From: Allacma fusca
Taxonomy: Eukaryota > Arthropoda > Collembola > Symphypleona > Sminthuridae
Assembly: GCA_947179485.1 (NCBI GenBank)
Contig: OX359248.1
Location: forward strand, 50,292,386-50,356,385
Reading direction: 5' to 3'
DNA length: 64,000 nt
Notes under the pieces: generated by a model
Told to the model about the DNA's origin: nothing
The model's input: only the letters and a program-made list of their open reading frames with translations
The model's database searches: none
Position numbers and translations under genes: made by a program
Shown: piece after piece, positions 9,058 to 37,863 of the stretch
Numbering within the stretch: the first letter of the stretch is position 1
Layout: each line of letters opens with the position of its first letter

Positions 9058-9061
9058 ATAT
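9058..9061. repeat. 4-bp target-site duplication, left copy (ATAT)
   Basis: ATAT directly precedes the 5' LTR and is repeated at 37864-37867 directly after the 3' LTR. Four bases is the usual duplication length for Ty3/gypsy-type integrases. ATAT is low-complexity, so it supports but does not alone prove the ends; the LTR alignment does that. Confidence 0.85.
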
Positions 9062-9075
9062 TGTTACGGATATAT

Positions 9076-9110
9076 TATAAATAGGCTAGAATAAGCATAA
9101 TCTAAGTCAG
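9076..9110 (+). promoter_or_regulatory. LTR core promoter: TATA box plus initiator
   Basis: TATAAATA at 9076-9083 is followed by TCAG at 9107-9110. The ~33-nt distance from the TATA start to the initiator A matches arthropod RNA polymerase II core promoters. That puts the start site at about 9109. Such short U3 space leaves little room for upstream enhancers, so control elements probably lie in R, U5 or the leader. Confidence 0.6.
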
Positions 9111-9464
9111 CAAATAGTTTGGAAGGTCGTAAGCAAGGGCTACGTGACGCCAAACGCTGACATAACATAATTGTAAGTAAAGGAAAGGAAATGATTCAGA
9201 TTATTTAATAAACAATAAAAATAGGAATAAGATTTAGATTAGATTAAGACACGTAGATTTAAGACAAGTTCTAATCTCGACTTCAAGCAAGCAACATCAA
9301 GAGGAGCCGCACCTAGAGTCCATTCCCTCCGGGATGGATCTCAAAAGGTAGCAAGCGGGGCAACATGAAATTCGGAGAATTTCAGGAAGAAGAGATTCAG
9401 ACTTCAAATTCTATTTTGTGTAAAATGTTAATTGTTCAGTGTAAATTGTATCAGTTCTAGGAAC

Positions 9465-9470
9465 AATAAA
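9465..9470 (+). terminator. Polyadenylation signal in the LTR
   Basis: AATAAA, repeated in the 3' LTR at 37690-37695, where it would direct 3' end formation. The alternative hexamers at 9207 and 9214 lie much closer to the start site. Confidence 0.5.
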
Positions 9471-9638
9471 TTGGCTCAATCAATTATAAACGAACCTACA
9501 CAACAGAATCAATAGTTCCATTTATTCATGAGTTTCACCAACATCGAAACCATAATTCAGGGGAATGGAACGCCCGAACCTAGGCTACATTGTCTATTAC
9601 CCACACAACATCAATACCCGGGTGATAGCAACGTAACA

Positions 9639-9656
9639 TGGTGTTTCTGCCAGGCC
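9639..9656 (+). other. Primer-binding site, tRNA-Val-like
   Basis: The bases right after the LTR begin TGGTGTTTCTGCC. Their complement ends GGCAGAAACACCA, the 3' end expected for a eukaryotic tRNA-Val (acceptor stem plus CCA). The match weakens after about 13-16 bases. tRNA-Val is inferred from general knowledge of tRNA 3' ends; the host's own tRNA set would settle it. Confidence 0.6.
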
Positions 9657-10259
9657 TTCGGGTTTTATTTGGTAAGGACCCGGAGGATCCGTAGGTCGGG
9701 GACCTGCGGATGACCCTGAAACAAAGACCAAACTTTGTAGCAAGTACGGTCGCAGTTTTCAAAATTCATGGGATGGAAGTATGGGGCTCGACAAGGAGAA
9801 AATGTTTCATTTCTCTCCAGGGCCACCCGAAACTTCTCGTGAAAGGCAGTTATAACATGCAATAATGTTACCTCAAGAAAGAAAATTTGGCCATTATCAT
9901 CACGCGCGGATTCAAATAACAGTTCAGAAGTCCTAGTGCGGCACTAGAAAAAGAACTATTTTTAGGCCTGAAATATTATTTTAAGTGACCAGTGAAATTG
10001 GGACTCTTTCCAACCGGAAAATTAGGGGAAGAGGACGTCCAATAAGGTAATACCATTTTTGTCTTTAAGGTTCATGAATTTCATGGTTAGGAACGCATTA
10101 ATTTTGTCATGTAGTTACGAGGCGTAGCTAATATTCAGGAGTAATTAACCAGAATTTAGGTGCAAATCATAGATTTAAATTAGAAAATTGCGCATATATG
10201 TATATGTATTTTGTGGTTTTCAGAATACATAGTAGGTGTGTGTGCATAAAAATTTTCAC

Positions 10260-10960
10260 CCAAATTAGCTTCTTCCAGTAAAAATAAGTCTTCTTCTATC
10301 TTTTTAGACGCCTAAAATGCCGGGCTTGAGCGTAGGCATAAACAGTGTTCGTATTGTAAAGAGAACTATTCCGGCTGAAGGGCCGACGTTAATTGAGCGC
10401 AGTATAATAGTAATCTTTCTCTTCGTAAGTTTTAAGTTCCTAATTTCAAAAGGGCCGTTTTTGAGCGTTGAAATTCTTTTAACTCTTCAAATTACTTTTC
10501 AAAGTTTGGGAAACCCCAGGCTAGGGGATAGGAACCCAAAACACAATTAAAATCTTTCAATTAATTGGGACATATTTTTTATTAATACAAGACTCTCAAA
10601 ATTCACTTTCAAAGCTAAGTTTAAAGCAAAAATATGATCTATCTTTCAATAAATAACTCAAAAATAATTTTCACTCTCTTCTTTCTCTACATCTTTTCGT
10701 CTTCTAATATAAGCACATTTGAAAGGCCGACAGTTATTGAGCGCAAATGTCTTTAAATTCTTTAACCTTCAAATTACGTAATTAAGAGCCCCATGGCTAG
10801 GTGGCAAAACCCAATTAAAACTCTTTCGCTGAAAATTACTTTCTTTACCTGATGTGTAGGTTTACACGGGTAACAATAGGATCTATCATAAACTTTTCAC
10901 AAACTTCTTTTCTTCTTCCATCTTTCCATTTCTACCAGAAGTGCCGGCTTGAGCGCTGGG
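10260..10960 (+). repeat. Diverged leader repeats with pyrimidine-tract/AG cassettes
   Basis: Three related blocks each show a long pyrimidine-rich tract ending in AG, then a GCCG...TGAGCG motif: tract ending at about 10306 and motif at 10317; tract near 10675-10710 and motif at 10721-10746; tract at 10905-10939 and motif at 10940-10960. The sequence after the motif is also shared between about 10461-10558 and 10736-10830 (TTCAAATTAC, CCCC-GGCTAG, CAATTAAAA-CT). Each cassette resembles a strong 3' splice acceptor, but a pyrimidine-tract ribosome-entry element is another reading. Confidence 0.65.
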
Positions 10961-12075
10961 TAATTAGGACATAATTTGTCATGGGTTTTTGGCAAATATT
11001 AGGATTTTAAAGTTAATCCGGAGGGCCGAATGTGAGCACGGAGCATATCAGATTTCAGTTAGTCATTTTTGCAAATCAAAACCTATATAGCTCAGTTAGA
11101 GAGCATAGGTAGATCAGACCATCTAAAGATTATAGTATGTAAGGTGAACCAAATTTTCTCGGAAGGGCCGAATATGAGCACCGAGGTGATTAGGACAGTT
11201 TAGTTAAGGTTTGAACAAAATTTAGTCCAAAGGGCCGAGGTACATTGAGCGTGGACATATTGGCATAGTACATAAGCATACATATAAGAAAATTCTCATC
11301 CACGTAGTTTAGGGATTCAAGGGCCGAAATGTGAGCGGAATCATTGTTGTATATAAGTTTTAGTACACGTAGAATCTGAGAGGCTAGGGAGATTAGGAGG
11401 GACCTTATGGTTTAGTAGGGTTCGAGTCATTCCAAGCACGGAGGTGATCTGATGGAGTGCCGACAAAAGTACCGATAAGCCTGTGACCTACTAGAGGTAA
11501 TCGGAGAGGCTATGATTGACGCACCGATATAGGTATATGTTTGTAATGTGCCCGAGCTAGCGGATAGGTAACAGCAATGACTATTACTAGTAAGGAGGTC
11601 CATGGGTTAGTGGATAGGATAACAGGGGACATTCCAAAGCACGGAGGTTCACTTTAAAATCTATGTATGCGGTTTCCAGCTATGGCCATACATAGGGACT
11701 TTCATATTTATTACTTCTTCCATAGATGACTCATGGTTTTGAGTGCATCATAAGATTAGCCATTCTCGAAGGATTTTGCTAGAGTAGAGAGAATTGGCAT
11801 AAGAAACCACAGGCTCATGGCTTTTGAGAGTTGGTTATAGGGATAGGAATTCAGTAAAATCTGGTGCTTTCAGTTTTTATTGTCTACGTCAGATACACGC
11901 CTTGATGATGGTAGGATCGGTTCAAGGAAGTTCTTAGGTACGAATTAGGACGCGAAACATATCCTTTGGGGCAGAAGGGTAATTAGTAGCGAGGAATACA
12001 GTCCTTATTAATTCTGGGAATCATTACAGGAGTATTTAGGGAAATTTAGGCAACACCGGCCCGAATGTGAGGAGT
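10317..12075 (+). repeat. Dispersed GGGCCGA(n)TGAGC leader motif, about ten copies
   Basis: Copies are seen at about 10317, 10379, 10449, 10721, 10940, 11020, 11161, 11229, 11320 and 12055. The core is GGCCGA, 2-8 variable bases, then TGAGCG or TGAGCAC, often followed by CGGAG. Such conserved short blocks in a noncoding leader could be RNA packaging or protein-binding sites. The role is inferred. Confidence 0.65.
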
Positions 12076-12129
12076 GTTGATTGACAATAAGACTGCTAAA
12101 TTTAAGGAGTTAGACGCAACTAGCCATTG

Positions 12130-12415
12130 CAAATAAGTAAGTTTAAGAAAGGTTAAGTTTTAAGGTGAGTAAGTTTAAGAGCTTTAAGTTTTAAGGAGTA
12201 TAGGATTAAGAAGACTAAGTTTAGAGAAGGTTAAGTTTAAGAGCACTAAGTTTTAAGGGGAATAGGTTTTAAGGAGGTTAAGTTTAAGGAAAGTAAGTTT
12301 ACGACAGTTTAAGTTTTAAGGGAATTAAGTTTAAAAGCAGTTAGGTTTTAAGGAAGGAATAAGTTTTAGAGGAAATTAAGATTAGAAAAGTTTAGGTTTT
12401 AAGAAAATTCAGGTG
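12130..12415 (+). repeat. Degenerate AAGTTTTAAG repeat tract
   Basis: About fifteen or more imperfect copies of a 10-20-base word (GTTAAGTTTTAAG, GGTTTTAAGGA and variants) in near-tandem array, made almost only of A, G and T on the plus strand. It is likely unstructured RNA that grew by slippage. Confidence 0.75.
12161..12170 (+). promoter_or_regulatory. Candidate leader splice donor
   Basis: TAAG/GTGAGT is close to the ideal 5' splice site, with the intron starting at 12165. A TTTACAG acceptor-like site ends at 12783, three bases before the gag ATG. Splicing between them would remove ~620 bases of leader. Alternatively this donor could serve the downstream ORF mRNAs. Unproven without RNA data. 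Confidence 0.35.
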
Positions 12416-12785
12416 GCAACACCTAAAGGTACTCATTGGAAACGTTAAGATTACAGAAATTAAGTTTTAAGACAGGTCACAGCCAAGGTTAGGGACGTTC
12501 AGGGATTGAACATTTAGGTTATAAGCACAGAAAATTTCTTTTCCAAGTTTCATCACCAATTGGCACAATTAAGCTTAACAACTAGAGTTACATAAGCATA
12601 GGCATACAAGACAAAATTTTAGGAAACGGTTTAAGTCGAAATTTGGCATAAGTTTTAAGAAGGTTTTCAGGATTGAATTTGACAAAAGAACTCTCACAAC
12701 CGTCAAACAAATTCATAAAACCAAACTCTACGAAACGCCTTAGCATTTTTCAGCCCATCAAGAAAAAGTTAGGACGTTTACAGGT

Positions 12786-15700
12786 ATGGAACCCGAAAAG
12801 AACCAACATCCATCAAGAAGGGAACCACCACCTGCACCTTCAATACCATCACGAAGGACTACGCGATCTGCAGGACCAGTACCACAGAATGAAACAGGCT
12901 TGGAGGAAATCCTCGCCCGTAGGAAAGAGGAGAGGAAAGCAGCAAAAGCCAAAGCTAATACAGCAACGGCAGGTGTAGACCTCTCTTCAACGTCTTCAGC
13001 TTCGACATCTACAGTCATGGAAGAATCCGGCAGTACAACCCTGGCATTATCTGCACAAAGTCCATCGGGCTCGCAGGCCATGGGGCACGGAGATAATCCT
13101 GACAATAATGATGAAAGCATAGATGTGTTCCTGGACACGGTGTCAACACCTGTAACAGGTACGGCAACCAGTCCTAGACGAACACCAACAGTATCAACAG
13201 CGCAAACACCAAAGTTATCAAAAACAAAGGTGGCGCAAGGACAAAATCTCCATAGACTAGCTATGCAACGAGAATTACGCGACCTCGAGGTAACCAACCT
13301 GGAGGGCCAACAGGTCCAACAAGACCAGGGGGTTGAGGCCACAGGTGAATTCATGCTAAATGCTAGAGGAGACATGGTTTTTGTCAGTCACGATGCTGAC
13401 CCAACGATCAAGGAAATCCTGTCGCAATTCAATCAACCTGAGGAAAGACCAACTAGTAGCGCTGCCATGTCATCATTTGAAATTCTCACGGATCCTGGAA
13501 GCAATCATACAAGCGCAGAGGAGGTCGAGCAAGGATTTGCAACTCCAGAAAGTGAGATGGAAGACGTGACCAATGAATCACCCAACAATGTGGTTGTCAG
13601 CAACTTGACAAACCCAGTTGGCAACGGAGACATTCCTCAAGACACGAGAGTACAATCCCAACAGGATGTACAAAGTCAAGGAATGTGCAGCAAAGCTACT
13701 GGACAAACAGAACAACAGGTTAATCAGCAAAGCTCAACGGAATTGGATGATTTGGAAGATTCCAATAGACCAATAGCTATAGCAACAAGTACACCAGAGA
13801 TTATCCAGCCAGGGAATCTCAGTACACACTCATCATTTAGGGACAATTTAGCAATAACTCAATCGGACGAGTCAACCGAACAGAGCGAACAAGGTGACTC
13901 ACCAACAGGAGTGCCACGTACTAATAACAGTATAGGGAGTGATCGTGACCAGGTCACTACTCAATTAAATCAGCAGTTATCAAATTTAAGTATCAGTGAC
14001 CACCGTAAATCGTCACAGTCGAATACGACAGTTTCTCAACAACCAGATATACAACAACTTGTGCGAGATAGGTTTCTATCAAGACCATCTCCAGGATTTG
14101 CCAATAGAGGAGACGTAGGCTTTCAAAGGACACTCAGCCGGGTGTCTGAGTCTACAGAACAGGAAGGCCCAGTCGAGGATCAGTTACCACCGATCAGAGA
14201 AGGGCAAGATAACATCCAAAGATTGGAGGAAAATTTCATACAATTAGTGGCAGGTACAGGTGTGATAGTACCAGCGGGTTCGTTTCAACAATTAGTGACC
14301 ACCGCAGGCTTCCAACGGAACTCAGTGGAAAATTTTCTGGTAGTTCGAGGATTGGAAGGACAACTGATAGAGGTGTATCACAGGTTAGCTCAAAATCTTT
14401 ATACAGGTACAGTCCAGTGGACACATTTTTTCCTTAGATTAGCTGAAGTCACCCACAGAAGGGACAATAACAGAGATCCGAATAGGGAAGAAAGGGAAGT
14501 GTTACGTACACGTGCCTTTGAGTACGGTCGGAACGTCAGGGACAACATTTTCATCCCCACAGACGTCATCCGAAACCTTTTAGAGCACCGGGTATTGTCG
14601 TTGAGAAGTCACCAGGCACACCAGGATAGCCAGATTTTCTTCAACGATACACCTAGGTACACAACCGTGATACAATCCGGAAGACTTAGTGAAAATCTAG
14701 AATTTGGTCAACCACGACAAGAAAGACGAGTCAGCAACGAGAGCAGGCCATATCCAGAACAAGATCCAGATAACAACGGGACCACCCAGCAAGGAGTCAT
14801 CGACTCCAGTGCTGACGACATCATTAGCAGGTACCTTAGGTACGACCAACGGAATCCATCAGTAACACGGAATCCGGTTACGGGTTTATTAGAACCAGCA
14901 TCTAGATCTACGCTAAGGACCATCTCAGGCGAGTCAACCATACAACCCGTTACGTCACGAAGCATTTCACCGGAAAGCTTGAATACCAGCTCAAGCTCAA
15001 TCAACAAGGCTATAGCCCAAGCAATAGCCTCAGCGACACTTCAAGCAGGTTTAACAACCCCTCGAAATCGGAAGTCGAGTAACTCCGATCGTGACCATCT
15101 CAGACCAAGTAACCAGGTGACGGACAGTAACCAGGTAGATTACTCATCACCTAGGTCACAACCTTTCCAGAAATCGGGGAGAAGACATTACAGGGTAAAT
15201 AGTGCTGAGGAAAACAGCAACTTAAAACCCAGGACCAGTCCACAGGGAATTACGACACGTGAGAGACCGAGCAACAGCCGTTGCGAGACAGCCATTCAGA
15301 AGGGTAGCCCAAGAGCACCCACTACATCACCTACAGTCCAGACAGGTAATCGGACACCAGCAGGGAGCTCTGCGGCACAACCGAGAGTGACCCCGAGGTC
15401 TAGTAATTCCTGTCGCTCCACACCTACAACAGGTGAAAGAGGGCAGTCAAGCCGACACAGCAACTCTCACGAGACAACACAGCAAATCAACCCAGTACAC
15501 ATCTCACCAACCAGTCAGAATAGACAGGTTTCAACGGAAAATACGCCAAGGAACCGACCAACTCAACCTAACCTGCAATTTAGACCACAACCCACCCAAG
15601 ACGATTTGGAGACACCAACTGAGGAGGTCGAGACCACCCAAATTGGTAGTACATCACAGGCTAACGTTAAGAGGGATTTAACGACAACAAAGTTGTACGT

Positions 15701-18700
15701 CAACACAGATTCCACCCAGGCAAATAACAACGAGCAACTGGTACACCGAGTTTACCAGTCACCGGGAGGTAGAATTTACGTACACCCACCCGTGCATGCG
15801 TTGCGAGCACCGCCACTTGACGTTAGTGAGACAGCTTTAAGAACATTGGTGCAAGTAGGGAGACAACTAAGAGAACAGAATCCGTCAATAACTATTGCAA
15901 ATACCATCAGAAATTCGGACACAGGTACTTACTATCAGGCATTCAGACCCCAGGACAGATTTACCGTCTATCAGTCACCTAGAGGCTCGTTATACAACAG
16001 CCTACCGATAGGACGCACGGGTATACACCGCCACATTCTACGAGGTCGAGACATCCTGCAACGGGCAACCAACAACGATAGGACCATCATAGAAGGTGGA
16101 GAGCTTGTAACAGCACCACAACCACCACCTTCGGAACAAACATCTAGAAGCAACGAGTCATACGTTCAAGGTGACACCTTAAGGTCACGGACAGCAACAC
16201 CTGCATCAACGACACGCGCAGCAACGACTTTTGCAGTACCAGCTAGACCAACCGGAAGGTTCATAACCAGGTCAGCAAACCGACCAACGACACCGACAGC
16301 TCCAGCTGTCCCCGTCAGACCAAATTCAGCAGTAGCAGGACCATCTCGAGTAACAACAACTCCAACCACAAGTCAAGGTAAAGTCAGTTGGCTTGACGAC
16401 TTACAATACGGAGTTGACATTTGGACAGGACCCAGTGGCAGAGTATACACCAGCGAGAACGAAGCAACCGAAGACGAGTTAGTACCAAGCAGAATAACAG
16501 TGAGACAATACTCTAAGATCGCCCGAAAACAAGACAGATTCAGAAACCAGGGGGTAGAAAACGAAGCGACTTGGACAGGCCAAGTGAGACGCCTGATCTA
16601 TTATAACAGAAGGGACGGTATCATACAACGAAGGTTCAGACCAACTAGAGACTCAAACTTTGAAGCATTTGCAGCTACAAGAGCTGAACACGAAGAAATT
16701 GTTCTGAGTGAACACCCGATATTTACCTTCTGGAATATAATCACCCGAAGATCTTTAGATCCAGGGCAGATCTCCAGCTACATCGCACCCAATTTCAGAC
16801 TTTACCATCGACACATCAGTCTACCGAACGGCGTTCGCAGACAAAGGGTACCACCAGGCTTCTTGGAAAACATTGAGAACGAACACGACCACCAAGAGGC
16901 ATTGAATAGATTAATTCACGATCCTAACGTGGAAATCTTGAGTGACACGTCCAGCGAGGAAGAAGAAGAGCAGGTAGTACAGAGAGACACTCCGAGACGT
17001 GAGAGTGGTCAGCATAACAGTGCACAGTCTAGTGAAGAGACAGAGCACATCTTCATTGGAGTTGACGAAGAGGACTTCATTATCCCAGAAGTACCAGGTC
17101 AATTCACTATAAGAATTTCTATAGACGACGCTTACGACGCTGCGTTCAGAGCAATTGAAAGAGACGAAGAACTACAAGAGGAAGTCCGATTTGTGGATAA
17201 TACCGGAGAAACTCACTTCTTCCCAAGAATCCGACTTCGAGACCTTAGTCCGGAAACTCAAGTTGTACTCACTCAAGTAAGAAAGAGACGTAAACCATTA
17301 CGAGCACGCCGTCAAATCGGAAATAACCAACCCAGACCACCAGGCCCAGGACCAAGTGGATCAGGGAGAGGAAACCAGCCGAGAGGAGCTAACAACAACA
17401 ACTCCCACAACCAGCGACCATCTCAATCAAGGTCAAATCCAGGTCGAGGAGGCTCAAGAGGAGGTAGACACATCGGAGGCAGACGGAGAGCAAGGAGCGA
17501 CCCCGGAAGTTCCGGAGGAAGTAGCTCATCATCCAGCTCCAGTAGTAGCAACCCAAGTAACCCTCACGACTTTGAAGCCTTCGACAACTGGAGGAATAGA
17601 CAGATTGTAAACAGAAATAACATCTTCAACCAGGTTAACGTCAACATCATCAACCCATACGTACCAATCAATCCAAATCAGGGAGTACGTATCGAAGACG
17701 TTGCAGACGAAGAGCAGGTACGAATAATTCCAAGGAGACATCTGGACGACGACATGACCGCCCTCATGTTTCCCAAAGTAGAATTCAAACCGGGTGTAGA
17801 TGACCCAGAGACAGCCTTCGCAACAGCCGAACTCCAGACCAACAGGTTCGGAGGAGATACCATCATAACCAGGATGCAATACGTGCAGATCATCTTTGAC
17901 CCACCCGTCAGGGATTGGATCAGAAATTGGATAGCAGAGCGGAGATTACATGAGGAACAACCATACGACACCATTGACTGGGACGAATTCAGAGAGGAAT
18001 TCCTGATAAGGTATAGTATTACCGACCAAATGATACGTACGCTGATGGAAAAGCGAAAGATGCACACAGATGAGGACCCATGTGCATACATAGATGCGAA
18101 ATTAGCACTAATCAATAGAGTCGACAGATTTATGCCCGAGATGGAGAAAATCAGACTCTTACGTGCAGGATTAACATCCGAATACATAGTCTTCTGTCGA
18201 GGATGGACAGCGGAGACTGTAGCAGATTTTGTAATTGGAATTAAACAATACGATGAAGATCGAAAAACAGATGGAGCAGAGTCCATTGAAACAAGATTTG
18301 TCAAAGTACAAGAAATGTTGGAGAAATTGACCTCTGGAATGAAAGCAGCTCCAACGGAAACAACCGTCGTGAAAGTAGCTGCAGTAAGAGAACAACAGGA
18401 TTATCGGAGACCTGAAAATAGACCCAATGACCAACGAGGCCGAAGTCCAGGTCAGGGAAACTTCAACAACTCACGGAATTCCAGTCCAGGTTACAGTAAC
18501 AATAGCAACTACCCGGACAGGGGACGTAACAATCAAAGTTACGATGACCGAAGGAATTATGGAAACCGAGGTAGATCTCCAACACCTGAGAGATTCTACA
18601 ATAATCAAGATAGGAGTAGGCCTCAGTACAGAAATGATGGCAACAACTCCAACAACCAAGGTTACCCTCAGAGGAACCAAAATTTTGGATCTAGACAAAG

Positions 18701-19352: not shown

Positions 19353-19372
19353 TTAAAGATATCCAAGAAAGA

Positions 19373-26569: not shown

Positions 26570-26579
26570 AAGCGAATGA
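26316..26579 (+). CDS. Overprinted coiled-coil ORF 4 (87 aa)
   Basis: Same frame as the three preceding ORFs. Basic and glutamine-rich coiled coil (IQQELQQVQEEIRELKRQ) with a Lys-rich end. Its TGA (26577-26579) overlaps the ATG of the next ORF (26576-26578) as ATGA, a layout often linked to coupled termination and re-initiation. The frame extends upstream to an acceptor-like TTCTACAG ending at 26297. The Pol frame runs through the same bases to its own TGA at 26567. Confidence 0.42.
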   Translation: MSSRKTIPEGLRELEQIRQTTEKHSATLRTRRVQIQQELQQVQEEIRELKRQAKYLKEKALKKPEKVDDTQLVPEKGREDLDQSESE

Positions 26580-26902
26580 GCACCACCAGATACTTAACAA
26601 CAATACCAAACTGTGTTAGTTTTGGTCAAAACGAGATTGATCTCAAGATTGGAGACCGTATAAATCTCATTAGTTATCTCATACGACAAGGTCGAAGGAG
26701 AATCCGATACGTAGGTACGTACACAATTATTAAAACAGATTACTGCAAAGTATTTTATCTTCAACCAGATGTCAGAGAACAGAGGGTCACGTGCATCCGG
26801 GTCTCGAACCAACGAGACTCCACGCCAAGACGCCCTACCCGCTGTCGACAGGGACGACGACGATCGACCACGTTATTGGACCCAATACGTGAGTCAAACT
26901 GA
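26576..26902 (+). CDS. Small ORF resembling an integrase GPY/F (SH3-like) module (108 aa)
   Basis: In the same frame as pol and starting 7 nt after its TGA. Residues ~23-80 read KIGDRINLI...RYVGTYTIIKTD...VFYLQ...RVTCIRVSN. This lines up by eye with the integrase C-terminal module of the same element (NIGDTVRVF...YKGPFVVIEVL...IIQDL...QKVHVERL): a GD turn, a G-Y/F strand, then two short strands ending in V-x-R-V/L. It may be a duplicated free-standing module or, by TGA readthrough, a Pol extension. The C-terminal third is Arg-rich and overlaps the start of the 1824-aa ORF in another frame. The homology is inferred from pattern only. Confidence 0.5.
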   Translation: MSTTRYLTTIPNCVSFGQNEIDLKIGDRINLISYLIRQGRRRIRYVGTYTIIKTDYCKVFYLQPDVREQRVTCIRVSNQRDSTPRRPTRCRQGRRRSTTLLDPIRESN

Positions 26903-29900: not shown

Positions 29901-32243
29901 CAAAAGATTCGAGACCAACGGAAATTACCGCAAGCTATTTGGCTAATGTCACAAGCAATACGTGACGGTTACCATCTAACAACCAAAACTTTACAATCAG
30001 TCGCAATGGACTTAATTACAAAACCAATCCCGTTACTACTACAGACCAAATACGAAATTTGGAAGGAGTACGAGATACAGTACGGGAAATTGATCACCAA
30101 AGTCATCCAAATTTTGGGACTTAAAGACACACATACACGTACCAGGCGAAGTATCTTGGCAAAAGACCAGATAAATAATCTACAACGCCAGATGCAAAAC
30201 AACCCTCACAGTATCACCAAAGGGGAAGACTATGTTCACCCCGCGGAGGAAATTGCAATAGGTGAAGTTGTACACTTCGCACTAGCAACAACAATCACGG
30301 AAGCAAACTGGACGATAGTTTTGCTCATACCACACATATATAACGGAGTGGACCATCTTAAAGAAGAAGAACTCAAAGGATGGGAGACAAAGGCACACGC
30401 CAACGTCTCACAAACCCACCCACTCTTCCAGCGAACGTCGGAACGAGCAGCCAGAGAACGGCAGAGGCGAGATGCATTCGTAGGACCGACCAACGCATGG
30501 TCACCCGTCAGCTATAGCAGACAATTCTTAAAACAACAGCTACAGCTTATGCTGGCACGGATTGAGGAAGAGGAGGCTCACTCATCGTCAGGAAAACCAA
30601 TAGGGATCATTCAACAGCTTGTACGATTTACCCTCAGAATGGTAATCTATATTGGCACGTCCGTTGGAATGGACTTCGGAGGGAACCAGGACCCAATACG
30701 GAAAGGTGACCCCGGAAGAAGCCACCCACGAAGGACAGAGGGAGCAGAAGGACCGGTTTTGGCCTCAGAAGAGGAACCGGCTGTGCCAACGGAACAAGCG
30801 GTGGAGGCTCAAGAAGAAGGAGCCGGAACACCATCAAAATTAATCAAGGAGGAGGTCTTGGACGACGAGGAAAAGCCACCATCGGAACATCAAGTAGATA
30901 GTTCATCAGACAACGAGACGGACAGTAGATGGGTGAAGACCAGATGTGAATACTGCCCACTCAAACACGGCCATAAGCCACCCGTAAGACCAAAGACCAA
31001 GTTAGCAGCACATGAAGCTTGGCAAAGACAAAAGGATATACCTGTACAATACATCCGAAGGAGCAGACCGGAATTGGACAGATTGTACGGACGGGACAAC
31101 GCTCCAAACTGTACATTCCAGTATAGAGGACGACAACGAGGTCCAGAGCCAGATATTGAACAACCCAGGGTTAGAGTTTACTCACCCATTAGGACTGTAG
31201 TATTCAACGACACTAGAGACAGACGAGGATCAAGGTCACCATCACCAGTACCATCCACGATAGCAGGACCACCCATACCACCCATTGAAGACAACCTGAA
31301 GTCCAGACGAGCTAGACAACGTCAACGAAAGGTGGAGTTTAAGGAAGAACGCCAGGAGAACCCAGAAGTTTCAGCACCGGCAGATCCACTGGCACAACCC
31401 GACTCACCTGATGTAAGATTCGTTGATTTAGCTCACGTATCATTTTACATAGGAGTCCGCGGATGGATGGTAGCACCAAGTTGGGAAGATGAGGATGCGG
31501 AAATAGTCATCTTTACCAACCCGAACGAGACACAGTTATACAGCCAACTGGATCCGGTACGACTTCAAGTGAGAAATATGGTGGAAAGGGCCAATGATCC
31601 ACTGGACCACTCACCGCCAAGATTTCCGGATCAAGTACTGGAAGATATTTCTGGAGACGAACGCCATAGCCGGATAGAAGCACAGTACTCCAGGAGAACC
31701 AACTACTTTAGCAACAACATGGACACAAGGGAAAGATCCACCATGTGTCCTCATTGTTACCAGAAATCTACCATCGACCCAGAAAGATTTCCAACATATA
31801 ATGTCTCACATCGTTCAATCAACAGTCCAGAACAAAATCTACTGAGATGGCTCAACAGAATGTACAGGGAGACATTTATCGAGAGACTCAACATTCACCA
31901 ACAACCTACTCAACCACCTCAACTACGACTCGAGCAGTTACAAAGGGCGCTTAGCACCTTAAGCGAACCCAGAACAGATGCTCATGAATCAAATATAGAA
32001 TACGCCGAACACCAAGCAGGAATAGATTACAACAATCACGGAGAATTAATCCGGGAAAGAAGGGCATTGCTGTATGATGCAATGGACCATCCCACAGATT
32101 ATCGCAGACTAGACCCAAGGGAGCGGGACCTGCTCATCTTATACGGGCAAAGTCGAAGAAACGTACCAATGGAAAATACCCGTCTGGAAACGATGGCAGG
32201 AGACATGAACATCTCACCAGGGGAAATGATACCGAGACTTTGA
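26769..32243 (+). CDS. 1824-aa ORF: nuclear-looking N half, glycoprotein-like C half
   Basis: Uninterrupted ORF from ATG 26769 to TGA 32241, not recognised as a whole. The N-terminal half has a beta-rich start, an Arg-Ser (RS) domain at about 300-367, and a Cys/His cluster (CX4C...CEHH, about 478-505) followed by a strong basic nuclear-localisation-like run. From Met 772 (ATG 29082, preceded by an acceptor-like GGAG) comes a signal-peptide-like segment with core WLSFLLMFGLITSAVG. Then follow four N-glycosylation sequons (NAS, NET, NWT, NVS), three furin-type sites (RERR, RTRR, RQRR) and a hydrophobic stretch near 1290. The C-terminal third has further Cys/His pairs (CEYC, CPHC). This secretory pattern suggests an envelope-like function for the second half, made perhaps from a spliced mRNA. 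That is inference; no known envelope family was recognised. Confidence 0.75.
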   Translation: MSENRGSRASGSRTNETPRQDALPAVDRDDDDRPRYWTQYVSQTEVEIPQAKILPNSDTGRLEVVLRVDGKLPHRIIVQGRDGREIVTHSVLIGALRKPRELTIDYRILRREPHFCGSINFPEQQLEVDRGERAPDDLVYLFKGQEFNPTPIRRQIPICRTRNRQPDDPWLVQNYRQEKDVPGQKNPRGDYDQDPWAFTTGLQYERGKTSRSSSRKVMGADPICGVTRVNIPEISEWLPQQEEQVEDVAHRISRRIDDNYGPDLRRGNLEDRRREPPRFAAYSAHMVPAGRGRGRAITNGESSGRQHRSSRESSRERHSSKDSRTRKRETESSSERKKRREDDRSRSRYDSPARSRSRRESTPPPSPFLSPAARDYKDRMERESTLTAPIVAPVLSYTAVTKMPPPTIPVNSEPPKPQRAVCIAQRERPVEVPIVTPPSVAVIPWSEETATDTATTADRDTANESSSDSEEEETVPIQTCSRKGCKRVRQVIATDSGPVVQQECEHHAKKRAKKEKKVKKEAQMTILELFGQNTAPTQPPAKWQSNIIKIGEDSRKAGKHEEMVNRIKDLGEIIRNLARQNVNADSAKKQKEGLMKELARHRQEWIKWRNDNDFHLVCAESKIDLQTRELPPAHFEPTNIPTSTATSGELERLLAQEKRNGPETASPTGMATEMPPSPGQNVEVATSELSIAEQHNDQSSSSEDFEVIRSKKKHKDRESSITSDTTEIVNHHQLSLADFANSPQDGTVILSDDEEPGQPTSSIQTPPHTPEMGRGGGGRRGGPIPYLGNSWLSFLLMFGLITSAVGQSNLRKELTGHYGPYPTTRASHYQWWTRLETENPTSPRGFDHVSLDFENKEDSDEIGHYDPYGQRDCPPVGNSAVRYQGFGSATAHRLWQNGVVRGVAGAVGMCTTGMVIVGVYTSSILDAVRRWNRPLKTVKIPQDWVLIESQLPDQRPIWMIMPVNASEEKELEDFLKENPTATEISPNLIALPGDIQRNAHYLNETSVAKVWNQALGKEVDAEESENGRERRNAPVPTSEEEERRQKIRDQRKLPQAIWLMSQAIRDGYHLTTKTLQSVAMDLITKPIPLLLQTKYEIWKEYEIQYGKLITKVIQILGLKDTHTRTRRSILAKDQINNLQRQMQNNPHSITKGEDYVHPAEEIAIGEVVHFALATTITEANWTIVLLIPHIYNGVDHLKEEELKGWETKAHANVSQTHPLFQRTSERAARERQRRDAFVGPTNAWSPVSYSRQFLKQQLQLMLARIEEEEAHSSSGKPIGIIQQLVRFTLRMVIYIGTSVGMDFGGNQDPIRKGDPGRSHPRRTEGAEGPVLASEEEPAVPTEQAVEAQEEGAGTPSKLIKEEVLDDEEKPPSEHQVDSSSDNETDSRWVKTRCEYCPLKHGHKPPVRPKTKLAAHEAWQRQKDIPVQYIRRSRPELDRLYGRDNAPNCTFQYRGRQRGPEPDIEQPRVRVYSPIRTVVFNDTRDRRGSRSPSPVPSTIAGPPIPPIEDNLKSRRARQRQRKVEFKEERQENPEVSAPADPLAQPDSPDVRFVDLAHVSFYIGVRGWMVAPSWEDEDAEIVIFTNPNETQLYSQLDPVRLQVRNMVERANDPLDHSPPRFPDQVLEDISGDERHSRIEAQYSRRTNYFSNNMDTRERSTMCPHCYQKSTIDPERFPTYNVSHRSINSPEQNLLRWLNRMYRETFIERLNIHQQPTQPPQLRLEQLQRALSTLSEPRTDAHESNIEYAEHQAGIDYNNHGELIRERRALLYDAMDHPTDYRRLDPRERDLLILYGQSRRNVPMENTRLETMAGDMNISPGEMIPRL

Positions 32244-32324
32244 ACAACACTGTTCAATGGTCAGAGAGGTATTGATAATCACCAAGTGCCAACATATCTA
32301 ACATGTCGGGAACATCAGGGAGTA

Positions 32325-33335
32325 ATGCAAGGGCTCACGGGAACTGAGCTACGCAGATTGATTACTCAGATGTGGTTTGACATAGGAACGCAACCAACCT
32401 GGCGAGAGCAAGAAATTTGGATAAATAGTTTCCTACTGAGAGGAGACGCCATCACCGGACGCGGAGAAAAAGCTTTACAACAACTAGCGAGTATACCAAT
32501 ACACATGCTAAGTTTTCAAGAATTTGCAAGTATGACCGAAAGGATCATAACTCTGTATCATCAGGACGCGGCAATTCAGGAGTGGCGACAATTGGGAGCA
32601 GTAAACCAGAGCAGCGGAAGTCAACCCAACCCAATCGACGACATTGAAGAAGAACTAGGACAATGGGAAGACTGGATATTCGCAATGAAACTGGCAGGGG
32701 AAGGCCAAAAGCCAACTACCCTATATGCTAGAAGACTGAAGGGAGGAGTAGCCACTCTAAGACAACCCCGGAAAACAGGTTCTTTTAGAGACCTAAACGA
32801 ACTTGTCACGATACGAATCTGGCAAAGAGAACACTTTCACAGGATTCGGGAGCAAATCAGCAACCGTGGAGATGGACCGAGTTACAAACCATACCAACTA
32901 TCTCCAAGAAATGAAAGACGACCAGGAATAACACCAATACACATGATACCAAGCGCGATAGACCGATTCCAAACAGCACAATGGAGATCAGTTGTCATTG
33001 ATGGAAGACCAGACGAACCCGATCTAATAAATCTCATACGAACCCTCAGAGGTCGGACAGGAATCGAAATAGTCTTCCGAGACCTTGGACATGATTTTAT
33101 ACAGGAAGAACTCAGGAGAGACCCAGTGACACAACAAAGAACCAGCTATCTTTCCATAACAAACCCTGTAGAGCATAGAAGGCTAATGGATCAGTTATGG
33201 GAAAGATCATCACGTGCAAGATGGGACCCGGAGATCTTATCCGAGAATAGATTTGCAGTCATATCATTCCGAACACTAGCGGAAGGAGAGGAGGAGACAG
33301 GCACCCTCAGAGGGCCGTCCGAGGAAGACGATTGA
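32325..33335 (+). CDS. Unrecognised 336-aa ORF, same frame as the 1824-aa ORF
   Basis: The frame is open from directly after the TGA of the preceding ORF (32241-32243) to TGA at 33333. The first ATG is at 32325; a GTG at 32286 would give 349 residues. The protein is soluble-looking, helical in its first third (LRRLITQMWFDIG, ALQQLASIPIHML), basic in the middle and acidic at the end. There are no membrane spans or known motifs. Because only one TGA separates it from the preceding frame, it may be made as a readthrough extension as well as, or instead of, an independent protein. Confidence 0.65.
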   Translation: MQGLTGTELRRLITQMWFDIGTQPTWREQEIWINSFLLRGDAITGRGEKALQQLASIPIHMLSFQEFASMTERIITLYHQDAAIQEWRQLGAVNQSSGSQPNPIDDIEEELGQWEDWIFAMKLAGEGQKPTTLYARRLKGGVATLRQPRKTGSFRDLNELVTIRIWQREHFHRIREQISNRGDGPSYKPYQLSPRNERRPGITPIHMIPSAIDRFQTAQWRSVVIDGRPDEPDLINLIRTLRGRTGIEIVFRDLGHDFIQEELRRDPVTQQRTSYLSITNPVEHRRLMDQLWERSSRARWDPEILSENRFAVISFRTLAEGEEETGTLRGPSEEDD

Positions 33336-33902
33336 AAACGTCACAGAGGATAATAACCTGACCATTCCATCCAGGTCATGGTATAAAGAGAAGGAGAACT
33401 AGCGGGGAAAGCAGAAGCCAAATTACCTGATGACGGAAGAAATTCCCGAAGGGAATGTAAAGTGTAGATTATTTCGCAAGAGAGGATCTACGATAAAACA
33501 TTTTTAAGATCTTATGTAGCATCAACCATCGGGATTACGGCGGATGTTACATAATGATCACCATAACAGAATAGTTAGAAAAGAAAAACAAATAAAAATA
33601 ATTACAAAATAGAAAACCAAACAAAAATAATTTCACTTACTAACACATTTTATAGAGTTCATAGGATAGAAATACTAACAAAAGATTATGTCACCGGAAG
33701 TGGGACATACGGATTACAACATCGGAATTAGGAAAAGAATTCTCTTTCGCAATCGGAAGATGAAAACACAAACAATTAATTGATATAAATACGAGACTCT
33801 TGAAACAGAGTACTCATTATAACCTCAACACCCACAGAGAGCTTAAATACTTGAGACTACTCAGAAAAAAGGAACAAAAATAGATACAAAAATTTTCCAA
33901 GG
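33336..33902 (+). other. Noncoding spacer before the small membrane-protein gene
   Basis: A-rich, no ORF. It ends in an acceptor-like TTTTCCAAG (33892-33900) two bases before the next ATG. This suits a spliced mRNA for the 243-aa ORF, as envelope mRNAs of retroviruses and errantiviruses are made. The splice site is a guess from sequence. Confidence 0.45.
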
Positions 33903-34634
33903 ATGGAATACAAGTGGTATATTCTTTTGAGCCTTGCAATAACCCTAATTGCAATGGACGTTTCCGAAACCAGACCGATAGCGCAGCCAAGTCCAGAACC
34001 ATGGGGAGGACCACTGATGGCAGCGTTGGGACAATCAGTAGGAAAATGGTTCGCAAATTACATGGTACCAGCCGTAACCGTCGGAAGCGGAGCTATCACA
34101 GCATCAATATTATCACAAAAGGACCCAGTAGTACATATACTACACCATAAAGACGACGGGAGACTAGCCTTAGTGCAGTATGACCCGAACGACCCAAACG
34201 TAGAAGCCCAGAGAATCATGGAGAGGAATCAACAAATGGCTTTACTACAACCTCAACAACAATTCATACAAAAACAACAGCCCACCATGCAGAGGGATAA
34301 CAGACCACCATGGATGGAACAATTTAACGAAATTGATTGGAAATCCAATGAGGTTCCAACATCAGACACGGATTACACCGTAGTCATTATTAGTTCATTC
34401 GGTTGTATTACCACAGTAGTGATATTTATATTCACAGTAATACTGTACCGAATTCGAATGCAGAAAAGAAAAACAGATCAACAAACAGCGAATGAGAGAG
34501 AATTAGACAATGTTGCAGAAACAGCAGCATTAGTCCAAAATTCTGTAGAGCAGTTAGTCGGATGCAGAATTGTGAGGCCCAACATACAACCACAGGCCAG
34601 CCGACATACAACCAGAGCAACCGTACAACTGTAA
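33903..34634 (+). CDS. Single-pass membrane protein of the retrotransposon (243 aa)
   Basis: ATG 33903 to TAA 34632. N-terminal signal peptide (about 1-24, core WYILLSLAITLIAM), a small-residue hydrophobic stretch at about 45-66 (MVPAVTVGSGAITASIL), a Gln-rich ectodomain middle, a transmembrane helix at about 157-180 (IISSFGCITTVVIFIFTVILY), then a basic stop-transfer (RIRMQKRK) and a ~55-residue cytoplasmic tail. No N-glycosylation sequons and few Cys were seen. The position before the 3' LTR is where envelope genes sit, but the size is small for a fusion glycoprotein. A viroporin-like or transmembrane-subunit role is possible. No homologue recognised. Confidence 0.7.
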   Translation: MEYKWYILLSLAITLIAMDVSETRPIAQPSPEPWGGPLMAALGQSVGKWFANYMVPAVTVGSGAITASILSQKDPVVHILHHKDDGRLALVQYDPNDPNVEAQRIMERNQQMALLQPQQQFIQKQQPTMQRDNRPPWMEQFNEIDWKSNEVPTSDTDYTVVIISSFGCITTVVIFIFTVILYRIRMQKRKTDQQTANERELDNVAETAALVQNSVEQLVGCRIVRPNIQPQASRHTTRATVQL

Positions 34635-37276
34635 CACCAACCCAACCGGGAAGGACCAACGTAAGAAAGAAAACAACGAAGAAAAATACGCAAAACCATA
34701 AAACTGTATGGAAAAATATTTAAAAATATTAATTAGTTATAAGATAGTATTAGAGAAACAATAGAATAAGTAGTTATAAGTAGGATAAGGTTAGGAAGAG
34801 AAAGCACAGAAAACCAAGTTCATATACAACAAAAAATATAAAAATGCAAATGAAAATAATAAAGTTCAAATAACGAACGAAAAGTTCAAGTTAGTTAAAG
34901 AGGCAGATTCCCAATAGGAGTACAGGGAGAATAGTCTAAAGATTATGTGATTCAAATCAATATATCTTTCGTGTCTCGATGGATCCTTTATCCATTTTCT
35001 TTCCAATTTTCTTTCCAACTCATTGATTCCAGTGATTAGATTTTATTGAATACCAACCCTATCAAGTCAGGCTATGTTTTGAAAACAAAGATTTAATTGT
35101 TAACGAGACGAGAAATGTTTCAAGATAAGGTTCAGTTCTAACCAAAATATTTGGCCAATTTTTAATTCCTTGGGGCTTGTTCACCCTGCAGCCAATAAGT
35201 GAGCATTGTAATGCCCTACGGTTTTTTATTAGGTTATTCAACTCCATATGAGAAGAATAAATTTATATTTCTAACCTACTCATCGCTTGGGATGAGCGGG
35301 ATAACAAATTCCAGCAAAAATCAGAACCCTGCATAAGCAAGTTCTCTACGATCAGGATCAGTTTGCCTTTTAGCTTCGGTTTAACGAAATTTATCTATCT
35401 AGATGTGCTAATAAAATACTTTAGGTACCTAGAACGACAGATTAAGTAAAACGGAAGTCCAAAGGATAGATTCTTCCAAAAGAATTTCTGTAGTGTAGTT
35501 CACTTTTACAAATTATTTACTTGCAAAATGTATCGCATTTCAAATGAAAGTTGACATGAATGTGCCCAGATCAGAAGGATCCTATGAGCACTAGATCTCC
35601 TATGAGACAAGACAAGAAAAACACAAAAATACATACCACGAATAGGTAGGAGGAACTTTAAATAAAAATATAAAAAGTAAGAAAATTACGGTAATGGAAA
35701 TATTTGATAAATTGTTGTCTTCTTGCTGACCTCTCCTCAAAGATCTGTAGAGAGGTATAAAAAGGCAACGAGAACTACATTGCAAACAGTGTTGACATCT
35801 TTTTACAATTTTCAGTACATGTCATGAACGACAAAAGGTTTACGGAATCATTAAATTCACTTCGTTTATATACAATGATTAAATTCAACATTCAGTGAAA
35901 AGGACCAAAAATTTAAATCTTAAAAGATCAAACGTCTTATTAGCTAGGATACATTCCATAGTTTCCCAAGACAAATTGTATTAAGAAAACACAGTTCTGA
36001 AAGAAATTTTAAACAGAAAATTTAGCTTACAAATTCGACACGTTCCATCAAATAGGATTTTTTACAGATCAAGGTATATATACATTTATGATTATCGCCA
36101 AATTACATTCCGATCTCAGTTGAGGAAATAGTTCACGGTACAATATGATTTTATGTCTTATGAAGTAGTAAGAACTACTTACAGAACTTCATGGAGCACG
36201 ATGTTTTCACATTTGGTGAAATTGCCAACAGTTGTGCATGAGAAGGACATAATTCCTAATCTAACCACCAAAGAACAATTATAAACTGTCTTAACATTCT
36301 ATGATTATGAAAGGGGGCACACACATTGTGTTTCCACAAAATATTTTTGTATCAGGGAGCGACATTTTTGTGGTCAGACCGTCACTTCAAACCGTAAATA
36401 GTGATATTGGGTAATCACACATTTTTCTGACAAAATTTTCCCACAACGATTTGTCTGTGACATGTTAAATTGTTTCACAAGGAAACTCACGGGAGTTTAC
36501 AAGCTATAAATTAAATAAACCTTAAAAATACATTAGGCCACCACCCTAGTAGCAGCAGTAACTGACAGTAGTCACAATGTTTCAACAGCTAGAATTTGGT
36601 ATCAGAAAATTAGAAATCACATGAGAATAGAAACAAAGGAAAATGTTTCATATCTGCCTTCAAGTATTCTTGAACATTCCTGCAAGATCCCATACCTATA
36701 TCTCAGTTACAACAGAAAATAAGGGTTTTCTTTTTTTTTCTCACAAACAAATTCTTTTCAAAATATGTGTACAAAAATTTCAATTCTGCTACGATGTTTC
36801 GAATCTGACATATTTTAGATATGACAAATAACATTAGAAATCAAGTTAAACCGTGATGTAAATAATGATGTATTCCATGTAAATATTGTATATGCAAATT
36901 GTAAAAGTAACTATATTTTTACACAAGCAATGTTAAAGTACTGCAACCATTCTATCAAAGACTTTCGTGTAAATGGTTCGATTATGTCATTTTGTAACAT
37001 CTGTTTTACTTCATCGTTTACAATAACACCATCAAATATTGTACAGCATTACAAAAGTATACACACATATGATGATGAACATGTATGAAAATTATATGAA
37101 ATGCCTTAACAATAATAATACCCATGATTACCATTACGACCATGCTACAAAGACCAGCCAATACCATGCGACCATGATTAGCTACAAAGTACGGTAACAA
37201 AAATAAAATTAGTATAATTACAAATAATATGATCTTGAACTTCGACAGATGACATTGTCGAGGACGAAAATTACCC
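34635..37276 (+). other. 2.6-kb 3' noncoding region of the retrotransposon
   Basis: AT-rich, with only short open frames on either strand and no recognisable protein. Its composition differs from the A/C-rich coding part and looks more like host DNA, so it may be captured sequence. No nested transposon ends were seen. Confidence 0.6.
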
Positions 37277-37286
37277 AGAAGAGGAA
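37277..37286 (+). other. Polypurine tract
   Basis: AGAAGAGGAA directly before the TG of the 3' LTR, the expected position for plus-strand priming. Confidence 0.85.
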
Positions 37287-37863
37287 TGTTACGGATATAT
37301 TATAAATAGGCTAGAATAAGCATAATCTAAGTCAGCAAATAGTTTGGAAGGTCGTAAGCAAGGGCTACGTGACGCCAAACGCTGACATAACATAATTGTA
37401 AGTAAAGGAAAGGAAATGATTCAGATTATTTAATAAACAATAAAAATAGGAATAAGATTTAGATTAGATTAAGACACGTAGATTTAAGACAAGTTCTAAT
37501 CTCGACTTCAAGCAAGCAACATCAAGAGGAGCCGCACCTAGAGTCCATTCCCTCCGGGATGGATCTCAAAAGGTAGCAAGCGGGGCAACATGAAATTCGG
37601 AGAATTTCAGGAAGAAGAGATTCAGACTTCAAATTCTATTTTGTGTAAAATGTTAATTGTTCAGTGTAAATTGTATCAGTTCTAGGAACAATAAATTGGC
37701 TCAATCAATTATAAACGAACCTACACAACAGAATCAATAGTTCCATTTATTCATGAGTTTCACCAACATCGAAACCATAATTCAGGGGAATGGAACGCCC
37801 GAACCTAGGCTACATTGTCTATTACCCACACAACATCAATACCCGGGTGATAGCAACGTAACA
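37287..37863 (+). repeat. 3' LTR (577 bp)
   Basis: Begins TGTTACGG and ends ACGTAACA. Same length as, and no visible difference from, the 5' LTR; followed by the ATAT duplication at 37864-37867. Confidence 0.97.

What the first reader, a model, noticed from the sequence alone, without database searches (positions are those of the whole stretch)
9062..37863. A 28.8-kb LTR retrotransposon with intact ORFs, among the largest of its kind
Seen: matched 577-bp LTRs, 4-bp duplication, primer site, purine tract and ~20 kb of open coding frame. Known: Ty3/gypsy elements are usually 5-12 kb; giant ones of ~30 kb (for example the planarian Burro elements) are rare. Inference: this is a giant arthropod lineage with a complex-retrovirus-like set of extra genes, and the best candidate here for an undescribed system.
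Basis: partly seen in the sequence, partly recalled or inferred. Interest (0 to 1): 0.93.

Follow-up and report, generated by a model that had tools for sequence, protein, structure and literature searches.

The report
Giant springtail retroelement with extra genes
A springtail chromosome carries a 28.8-kilobase jumping element, many near-identical copies of which are scattered over the genome; besides the usual virus-like genes it carries a very large unknown gene and several small overlapping genes that natural selection preserves, so it tests how long a reverse-copied RNA genome can be.

Summary
It is not nested or mis-assembled: 17 LTR pairs (this one included) span a median 28,694 bp, and 95 RT copies scored at 98-100% identity. 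Comparing copies shows purifying selection on a 2,188-aa Gag (omega 0.12), the Pol enzymes, a homolog-less 2,188-codon ORF3 (0.11) and a small signal-peptide/TM-like protein (0.17). This copy's ORF3 has a stop codon that the 25 other copies examined lack, so "intact ORFs" is only partly right. New here: five coiled-coil-like small ORFs overlapping the pol tail in the +1 frame, and a basic 108-aa ORF; all six show coding selection. A -1 frameshift signal (GGGAAAC plus hairpin) joins gag and pol. It is a known kind (Ty3/Gypsy), but an extreme variant that my searches did not find described. Roles of ORF3 and the small genes are inferred.

The parts
9062..9638 (+). 5' LTR, 577 bp, TGTTAC...GTAACA, identical to the 3' LTR
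   Evidence: 40 scored genome hits
9058..9061 (+). target-site duplication ATAT, left copy (right copy 37864-37867)
   Evidence: ATAT also at 2 of 2 other complete pairs examined, and 2 of 2 single ends agree
9639..9651 (+). primer-binding-site-like TGGTGTTTCTGCC; the 3 other copies examined read TGA in place of TGG
   Evidence: the match to the 3' end of tRNA-Val is recalled and could not be tested
9639..12785 (+). 3.1-kb leader without a consistent coding signal, with a degenerate tandem array at 12136-12391 holding the element's only perfect splice-donor match (12165)
   Evidence: 2.8-5.2% divergence at 9639-11138 (4 copies) and 3.9-4.1% at 11000-12690 (3 copies); 12691-12785 not compared
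12786..19352 (+). gag, 2,188 aa: long low-complexity N-terminal part, sub-threshold Retrotrans_gag match, C-terminal CCHC zinc knuckle
   Evidence: omega 0.120 in 3 copies (one of the three, L041, has a stop and a 74-nt unaligned stretch); 18 of 22 scored copies without stops
19319..19352 (+). -1 frameshift signal: in-phase slippery heptamer GGGAAAC and GGGGG/CCCCC hairpin before the gag stop
   Evidence: z -2.95; heptamer and stem the same in 3 of 3 copies
19307..26569 (+). pol, 2,420 aa: PR, RT, RNase H, ~680-aa low-complexity insert, integrase H2C2 + rve + p58_C, 630-aa tail
   Evidence: omega PR-RT windows 0.00-0.13, RNH part 0.00, insert 0.26, IN 0.07; 64 of 95 scored copies have an open frame of 2,413-2,420 aa
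25176..25388 (+). small ORF a, 70 aa, coiled-coil-like, +1 frame inside the pol tail
   Evidence: from 25218 on: omega 0.07; p 0.0012
25392..25634 (+). small ORF b, 80 aa, coiled-coil-like
   Evidence: omega 0.26; p 0.0034
25734..25904 (+). small ORF c, 56 aa, heptad repeat
   Evidence: omega 0.11; p 0.0008; heptad 0 of 500 shuffles
25938..26183 (+). small ORF d, 81 aa
   Evidence: omega 0.11; p 0.0002
26316..26579 (+). small ORF e, 87 aa, heptad repeat
   Evidence: omega 0.49, the weakest; p 0.0070; heptad 0 of 500 shuffles
26576..26902 (+). small ORF f, 108 aa, arginine-rich, start overlapping the stop of e (ATGA), end overlapping ORF3
   Evidence: omega 0.07 before the ORF3 ATG, 0.10 overall; p 0.0002; no signal for f in the part that overlaps ORF3 (p 0.38)
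26769..33335 (+). ORF3, 2,188 codons, no homolog found; interrupted by TGA at 32241-32243 in this copy
   Evidence: omega 0.112, 26 copies; 8 of 26 have a stop somewhere; no homologs:
26749..26768 (+). candidate splice acceptor ending CAG directly before the ORF3 ATG
   Evidence: AG invariant in 26 of 26 copies, but it also lies inside ORF f
33903..34634 (+). small membrane protein, 243 aa: signal-peptide-like start (judged by eye), one strong TM segment (hydropathy peak from residue 162), basic stretch after it
   Evidence: (omega 0.170, 7 copies); its ATG is not kept at this place in all copies
34635..37286 (+). 3' non-coding region, fast-changing (5-14% between copies)
37287..37863 (+). 3' LTR

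Best explanation
It is a recently inserted copy of a giant, multi-copy Ty3/Gypsy-type LTR retroelement of the springtail Allacma fusca. A ~28-kb RNA made from LTR to LTR serves as genome and as mRNA for Gag and, by a -1 frameshift at GGGAAAC, Gag-Pol; RT primed next to the 5' LTR copies it, and the integrase inserts it at ATAT. The remaining genes (small coiled-coil-like ORFs a-e, basic ORF f, giant ORF3, small TM protein) are probably made from spliced mRNAs that use the leader donor at 12165; the acceptor at 26768 would put ORF3's ATG first. Most likely roles: the coiled-coil proteins and the basic f act with the genomic RNA or in the nucleus (regulatory proteins, as in complex retroviruses); ORF3 is a second structural or scaffold polyprotein that helps package so long an RNA; the TM protein serves membrane targeting or cell-to-cell spread. 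Shown: anatomy, repeated copies, selection on each ORF. Inferred: frameshifting, splicing, protein roles.
For: LTRs, duplication, boundaries; 17 LTR pairs of similar span on five scaffolds, C1, C8, C9, C10, C12; 95 scored RT copies (of 2,177 candidates) at 98-100% aa identity, 64 with a pol frame of 2,413-2,420 aa; Ty3 is the best solved relative of RT/RNH (E 8e-73); domain order PR-RT-RNH-IN; omega per gene, with other frames of ORF3 and the TM gene above 1 and those of gag mostly so; re-dealing test that conditions on the pol frame; slippery site and stem the same in 3 copies; host chromosome lengths.
Against: No RNA or protein data: frameshifting, splicing and expression of a-f, ORF3 and the TM protein are unproven. 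ORF3 is broken in this copy and 8 of 26 scored copies have a stop in it. The pol tail has no stop in 24 of 26 copies although its own frame is little selected (0.82; five of the 26 have gaps, two of them over 230 codons), so which frame drives which is open. The PBS differs from the window's in the 3 other copies examined. ORF e is weak (omega 0.49), and the heptads of b and d are not beyond shuffles. No acceptor-like site was seen before ORF a. Copies for ORF3 were the best-scoring ones, which can lower omega; the gag/pol copies were picked by LTR instead and agree, but are only three.
Confidence: 0.85

Rival explanations
1. An ordinary 5-12 kb Ty3/Gypsy element swollen by nested insertions or captured host DNA in this one place, or an assembly artefact.
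For: Unusual size; large stretches without known domains.
Against: 17 LTR pairs with a median span of 28,694 bp; 22 of 26 scored ORF3 places have an ORF3 frame of 2,201-2,219 aa when stops are read through; the gag match is full length in 22 of 22; no N in the window; selection across gag, pol and ORF3.
Confidence: 0.02
2. A provirus of a presently infectious, Env-bearing retrovirus of arthropods (errantivirus-like), the 243-aa TM protein being its entry protein.
For: Young insertions (0, 0 and 2 LTR differences in the three pairs examined), ATAT targets as I recall for some errantiviruses, a signal-peptide-like plus TM protein under selection.
Against: No Pfam match above cut-off, no N-glycosylation motif, 2 cysteines; smaller than the F-type Env that I recall; no relatives found.
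Confidence: 0.2
3. The small ORFs a-e are not separate proteins but exons of one spliced regulatory protein, or a by-product of constraint on RNA.
For: They lie in tandem in one frame; a donor-like word exists at 25644.
Against: Each has its own stop, and b-e their own ATG, kept in all 24-26 copies that cover them (the ATG of a lies outside the compared stretch); the changes follow codon positions, and two spacers lack the signal.
Confidence: 0.2
4. ORF3 is a divergent second Gag (duplicate of the first).
For: Same length from ATG to stop (2,188 codons each), similar R-rich make-up, strong conservation toward the C-terminal end (codons 1,600-2,188, omega 0.034-0.076), where gag carries its capsid/zinc-knuckle part.
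Against: No BLASTP similarity, no Retrotrans_gag or zinc-knuckle match; single-sequence fold of the last 363 aa useless (pLDDT 35.6).
Confidence: 0.25

Closest known systems
Burro elements of planarians (Ty3/Gypsy-like; PMC6431247, passages read)
   Same: Giant size (>30 kb in total, internal region up to 25 kb), Ty3/Gypsy-like pol, high copy number, extra coding capacity, tandem repeats.
   Different: Burro has one enormous ORF1 (4,873 aa) with BIR, BCL2-like, ankyrin and MATH motifs; here gag, pol, ORF3, TM protein and six small ORFs are separate, LTRs are 577 bp, Pfam finds none of those domains, and the internal region is longer (27.6 kb).
Errantiviruses (gypsy, 17.6, ZAM; recalled)
   Same: LTR-gag-pol-further gene order, 4-bp ATAT-type duplications.
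   Different: No recognisable Env; giant Gag; extra genes; several times longer.
MDG1-group elements with sORF2, FAST-like (PMC11952523, passages read)
   Same: Ty3/Gypsy element with a small single-TM protein followed by basic residues, and small accessory ORFs.
   Different: sORF2 is ~70 aa and upstream of gag; here 243 aa, downstream, with a signal-peptide-like start.
Cer1 of C. elegans with CERV (PMC10309623, passages read)
   Same: LTR element with an extra protein from a spliced mRNA; a model for an RNA-export role.
   Different: No sequence link was tested; the analogy is of function only.
Complex retroviruses and foamy-like ERVs (the latter up to 17 kb, PMC6431247, passages read)
   Same: Accessory genes beside or over pol and env (for complex retroviruses recalled).
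   Different: RT is closer to Ty3 than to retroviruses; no relation of the small genes was found.
Ogre elements of legumes (PMC6431247, passages read)
   Same: Large Ty3/Gypsy elements, 16-25 kb.
   Different: Ogre's size is largely LTR; internal region 11-13 kb with 1-2 extra ORFs.

Membership tests
Ty3/Gypsy (Metaviridae) | Domain order PR-RT-RNH-IN in pol | tested here: met
Ty3/Gypsy (Metaviridae) | RT/RNH nearest to Ty3 among solved structures | tested here: met
   Ty3 8e-73, next different molecule 3.6e-44
Ty3/Gypsy (Metaviridae) | TG...CA LTRs, 4-6 bp duplication, PBS and PPT | tested here: met
   tRNA identity untested, PBS varies between copies
Ty3/Gypsy (Metaviridae) | Supported place in a named clade of an RT tree | tested here: inconclusive
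   end branch 1.14, no starred set holds it; few named references
Errantivirus | F-type envelope gene | tested here: not met
   by sequence only, no fold:
Burro | Fused giant ORF1 with BIR/BCL2/ankyrin/MATH domains | tested here: not met
FAST-like sORF2 proteins | Short protein (~70 aa for sORF2) with N-myristoylation motif MGxxxS/T, TM and polybasic stretch | tested here: not met
   TM and basic stretch present, size and motif not; the paper itself notes two sORF2 proteins without the motif
Retroviridae (complex) | Retroviral RT clade | tested here: not met
   by best match, not by a tree with retroviruses

The most novel reading that the evidence does not exclude
A separate lineage of giant Ty3-type retroelements in springtails that has independently built a complex-retrovirus-like programme: two giant structural polyproteins (Gag and ORF3), a row of five coiled-coil genes and a basic regulator overprinted on and behind the pol end, and an Env-free membrane protein for spread, together allowing the longest reverse-transcribed RNA genome known.
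Probability: 0.35. Interest if true: 0.9.

Novelty: new variant of a known kind. Interest (0 to 1): 0.76.

Why it matters
Limits on retrotransposon length were traditionally put near 10 kb and tied to transcript length, RT processivity and packaging (review PMC6431247, passages read). A young family of ~28.7-kb elements, with selection on most of its coding length, shows that a Ty3-type RT can copy such RNAs often enough to leave at least 95 near-identical RT copies in a 393-Mb genome. It offers selected proteins for which I found no homologs, and a case of several genes overprinted in one frame on a weakly constrained pol tail.

Tried and rejected
Nested/chimeric/assembly explanation: rejected. 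ORF3-ORF3b as programmed read-through: rejected, none of the 25 other copies has a stop there. Further coding genes in the leader or 3' region: no frame shows a consistent signal in 3-4 copies (12691-12785 was not compared). Overlapping genes inside gag or the RNH-IN insert: none convincing in 3 copies. ORF3 as recognisable Gag duplicate: no similarity. ORF f as a detached integrase C-terminal (SH3-like) domain: the pattern looked alike to me, but the alignment was not beyond shuffles (52 of 500; the integrase core, no natural partner, did better with 12 of 500), and the fold was unusable (pLDDT 36.6). Neither model was used for a fold search. Homologs of ORF3, of the TM protein and of the Gag C-terminal part: none; how many springtails those collections hold is unknown to me, so this is weak. 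Pol homologs: 44, all 25-40% identical; those that bear a species name are from Cordylochernes, Branchiostoma, Fusarium, Tanacetum and Lineus. Host alternatives: Tenthredo mesomela is also 392.8 Mb but has 10 chromosomes (listing). Papers: ten searches listed no description of this element or of giant LTR elements in springtails; I saw listings and starts of abstracts, and passages only of PMC6431247, PMC10309623, PMC10427803, PMC11952523 and PMC12440569.
Full report
What is there. Two 577-bp direct repeats at 9062-9638 and 37287-37863 are identical, begin TGTTAC, end GTAACA and are flanked by ATAT on both sides. Between them lie 27,648 bp. The open frames are gag (12786-19352, 2,188 aa from its ATG), pol (19307-26569, 2,420 aa stop to stop), ORF3 (26769-32243, continuing in frame to 33335) and a small protein (33903-34634). 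Pfam finds a zinc knuckle and a sub-threshold Retrotrans_gag match in gag, and protease, RT, RNase H, integrase zinc-binding, rve (just under its cut-off) and p58_C domains in pol; ORF3 has no match and the small protein none above the curated cut-offs. RT/RNase H finds Ty3 first among solved structures (8e-73), then an 'enzymatic polyprotein' (3.6e-44), then other RTs, retroviral ones among them.

Host. The tool gives the genome as 392,743,791 bases in 91 contigs, with C1 81.89, C8 75.61, C10 66.08 and C12 58.81 Mb. These match chromosomes 1-4 of the springtail Allacma fusca (81.9, 75.61, 66.08, 58.81 Mb; 392.8 Mb in 95 scaffolds; PMC10427803, passages read). The window is therefore on chromosome 4.

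Not nested, not an artefact. Of 40 scored LTR hits (278 first-look candidates), 34 form 17 same-strand pairs spanning 27.4-34.0 kb, median 28,694; 6 are unpaired in that list. A search with the RT region scored 95 of 2,177 candidates, all 95 at 98-100% aa identity; 38 of 95 keep a pol frame of exactly 2,420 aa and 64 of 95 one of 2,413-2,420 aa. ORF3 was scored at 26 places of 621 candidates, 22 of them with a frame of 2,201-2,219 aa when stops are read through; gag at 22 of 1,518, full length in each, 18 without stops. All are lower bounds and show the best matches only, so divergent relatives in this genome were not seen. LTR pairs differ at 0 of 577 (window), 0 of 577 and 2 of 573 positions (plus 4 gap columns) in the three pairs examined, so these insertions are recent. 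The duplication is ATAT in all 3 complete pairs, and 2 of 2 single ends agree.

Selection. Omega by the Nei-Gojobori method between copies: gag 0.120 over its whole length, windows 0.03-0.32 (window, L041, L042; one stop and a 74-nt unaligned stretch in L041, the first 61 bases of gag missing in L042; other frames mostly above 0.5). PR-RT windows 0.00-0.13 past the gag overlap. RNH part 0.00, RNH-IN insert 0.26, IN 0.07, tail before ORF a 0.28 (window, L043, L044; L043 has an 8-nt gap in the IN part). ORF3 0.112 over 26 copies, 200-codon windows 0.034-0.297, against 1.57 and 1.90 in its other frames. TM protein 0.170 over 7 copies, against 1.70 and 1.36. By the charge-hydropathy line 80% of 51-aa windows of the gag N-terminal part, 73% of ORF3's first 1,824 aa, 96% of the RNH-IN insert and 100% of the pol tail lie on the disordered side, against 28% for PR-RNH and 26% for IN; but the gag C-terminal part gives 81%, so the measure is crude for such R- and Q-rich proteins. 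The long low-complexity parts of gag and ORF3 are thus real coding sequence; those of pol are held less strictly. ORF3 copies were the best-scoring ones; the gag and pol copies were chosen by their LTRs. 8 of 26 ORF3 copies have a stop (one of them three codons from the end); the window's own, at 32241-32243, is in none of the other 25.

Overlapping genes. In the pol tail from 25232 to 26566 the pol frame has omega 0.82 and the other two 0.27 and 1.04 (26 copies; 2 have stops, 5 have gaps, 2 of these over 230 codons). The frame with 0.27 (+1 to pol) holds five ORFs. Their stops, and the ATGs of b-e, are kept in all 24-26 copies that cover them; the ATG of a lies upstream of the compared stretch. 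Omega in that frame: a 0.07 (from 25218 on), b 0.26, c 0.11, d 0.11, e 0.49, while the spacers b-c and d-e give 0.76 and 0.68. When the observed changes are re-dealt at random, keeping the type of base change and its class in the pol frame, synonymous changes in the ORF frame exceed expectation: a 17 vs 9.1 (p 0.0012), b 23 vs 15.1 (0.0034), c 16 vs 9.1 (0.0008), d 22 vs 10.6 (0.0002, the floor), e 25 vs 17.2 (0.0070); spacers b-c and d-e 0.57 and 0.79; third frame 1.0. The short spacer c-d, tested only, gave p 0.08 with 7 changes. Changes shared through descent are counted once per column, but columns are not fully independent. A sixth ORF, f (26576-26902), starts on the stop of e (ATGA) and gives 35 vs 14.4 (p 0.0002, the floor) before ORF3 begins; inside the overlap with ORF3 there is no signal for f (p 0.38, 11 changes). 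Proteins a-e look like short coiled coils: heptads exceed shuffles for c and e (0 of 500) and a (14 of 500), not for b and d (101 and 56 of 500); b and c resemble each other beyond 200 shuffles; the sub-threshold Pfam matches of c and e include many coiled-coil families. f is arginine-rich and has no match.

Expression signals. GGGAAAC at 19319 sits in the gag phase needed for a -1 shift, with a GGGGG-ACGCA-CCCCC stem 7 bases downstream (z -2.95 for 100 nt, 0 of 200 shuffles), the same in 3 copies. The only perfect donor match in the element, AAG|GTGAGT at 12165, lies in the leader's tandem array and is kept in 3 of 3 copies; a pyrimidine-rich stretch ending CAG stands directly before the ORF3 ATG, its AG kept in 26 of 26. 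Splicing is therefore plausible, not shown. The TM protein's ATG is not at the same place in all copies.

How it most likely works. Transcription from LTR to LTR, Gag and frameshifted Gag-Pol, reverse transcription, insertion at ATAT: standard Ty3/Gypsy biology. ORF3, best conserved in its first 200 codons (0.055) and from codon 1,600 on (0.034-0.076), is most likely a structural or scaffold protein for a very long RNA; a-f, by analogy with complex retroviruses and with CERV of Cer1 (PMC10309623, passages read), most likely regulate RNA export or nuclear steps; the TM protein most likely targets membranes, perhaps for spread without Env as proposed for MDG1 elements (PMC11952523, passages read), though it differs from that group's proteins in size, position and N-terminus. 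These roles are inference.

Comparison. The review of giant transposons (PMC6431247, passages read) gives Burro internal regions of up to 25 kb and totals above 30 kb, Ogre internal regions of 11-13 kb, and foamy-like fish ERVs of up to 17 kb. By internal region this element is longer than all three; by total length Burro is longer. I found no report of it in ten keyword searches of open papers. An RT tree of 40 rows puts the window on a long branch (1.14) without a supported partner; its highest identity is 41%, to a Cordylochernes protein.

Odd points. The leader (11000-12690) differs by only 3.9-4.1% between the same three copies whose gag synonymous sites differ by 15.8% and whose 3' region differs by 10-14%: the leader looks constrained as RNA. 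gag and ORF3 have the same number of codons, 2,188, without detectable similarity.

Noticed in passing
11000-12690 versus 34640-37200: Leader differs by about 4% between three copies, their gag synonymous sites by about 16% and their 3' region by 10-14%; the non-coding leader seems under RNA-level constraint.
   Followed up: partly
12136-12391: Degenerate tandem array (TAAGTTTAAGG-like units) in the leader that contains several GTAAGT/GTGAGT splice-donor-like words.
   Followed up: partly
12786-19352 and 26769-33335: gag and ORF3 both measure exactly 2,188 codons from ATG to stop without sequence similarity.
   Followed up: partly
9639-9641: The window's PBS begins TGG, the three other copies examined begin TGA.
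   Followed up: no
G000 C1:24783512 and C1:24811704: Two RT copies 28.2 kb apart on the same strand, as in a tandem array sharing an LTR.
   Followed up: no
G000 C10:45400785 and C10:45418921: Two ORF3 copies 18 kb apart on opposite strands.
   Followed up: no
1496-1617: Perfect 27-bp tandem repeat, 4.5 copies, in the host flank.
   Followed up: no
47057-50028, 55529-56179: Four minus-strand open frames of 150-234 aa in the flank, no Pfam match above the cut-off.
   Followed up: no
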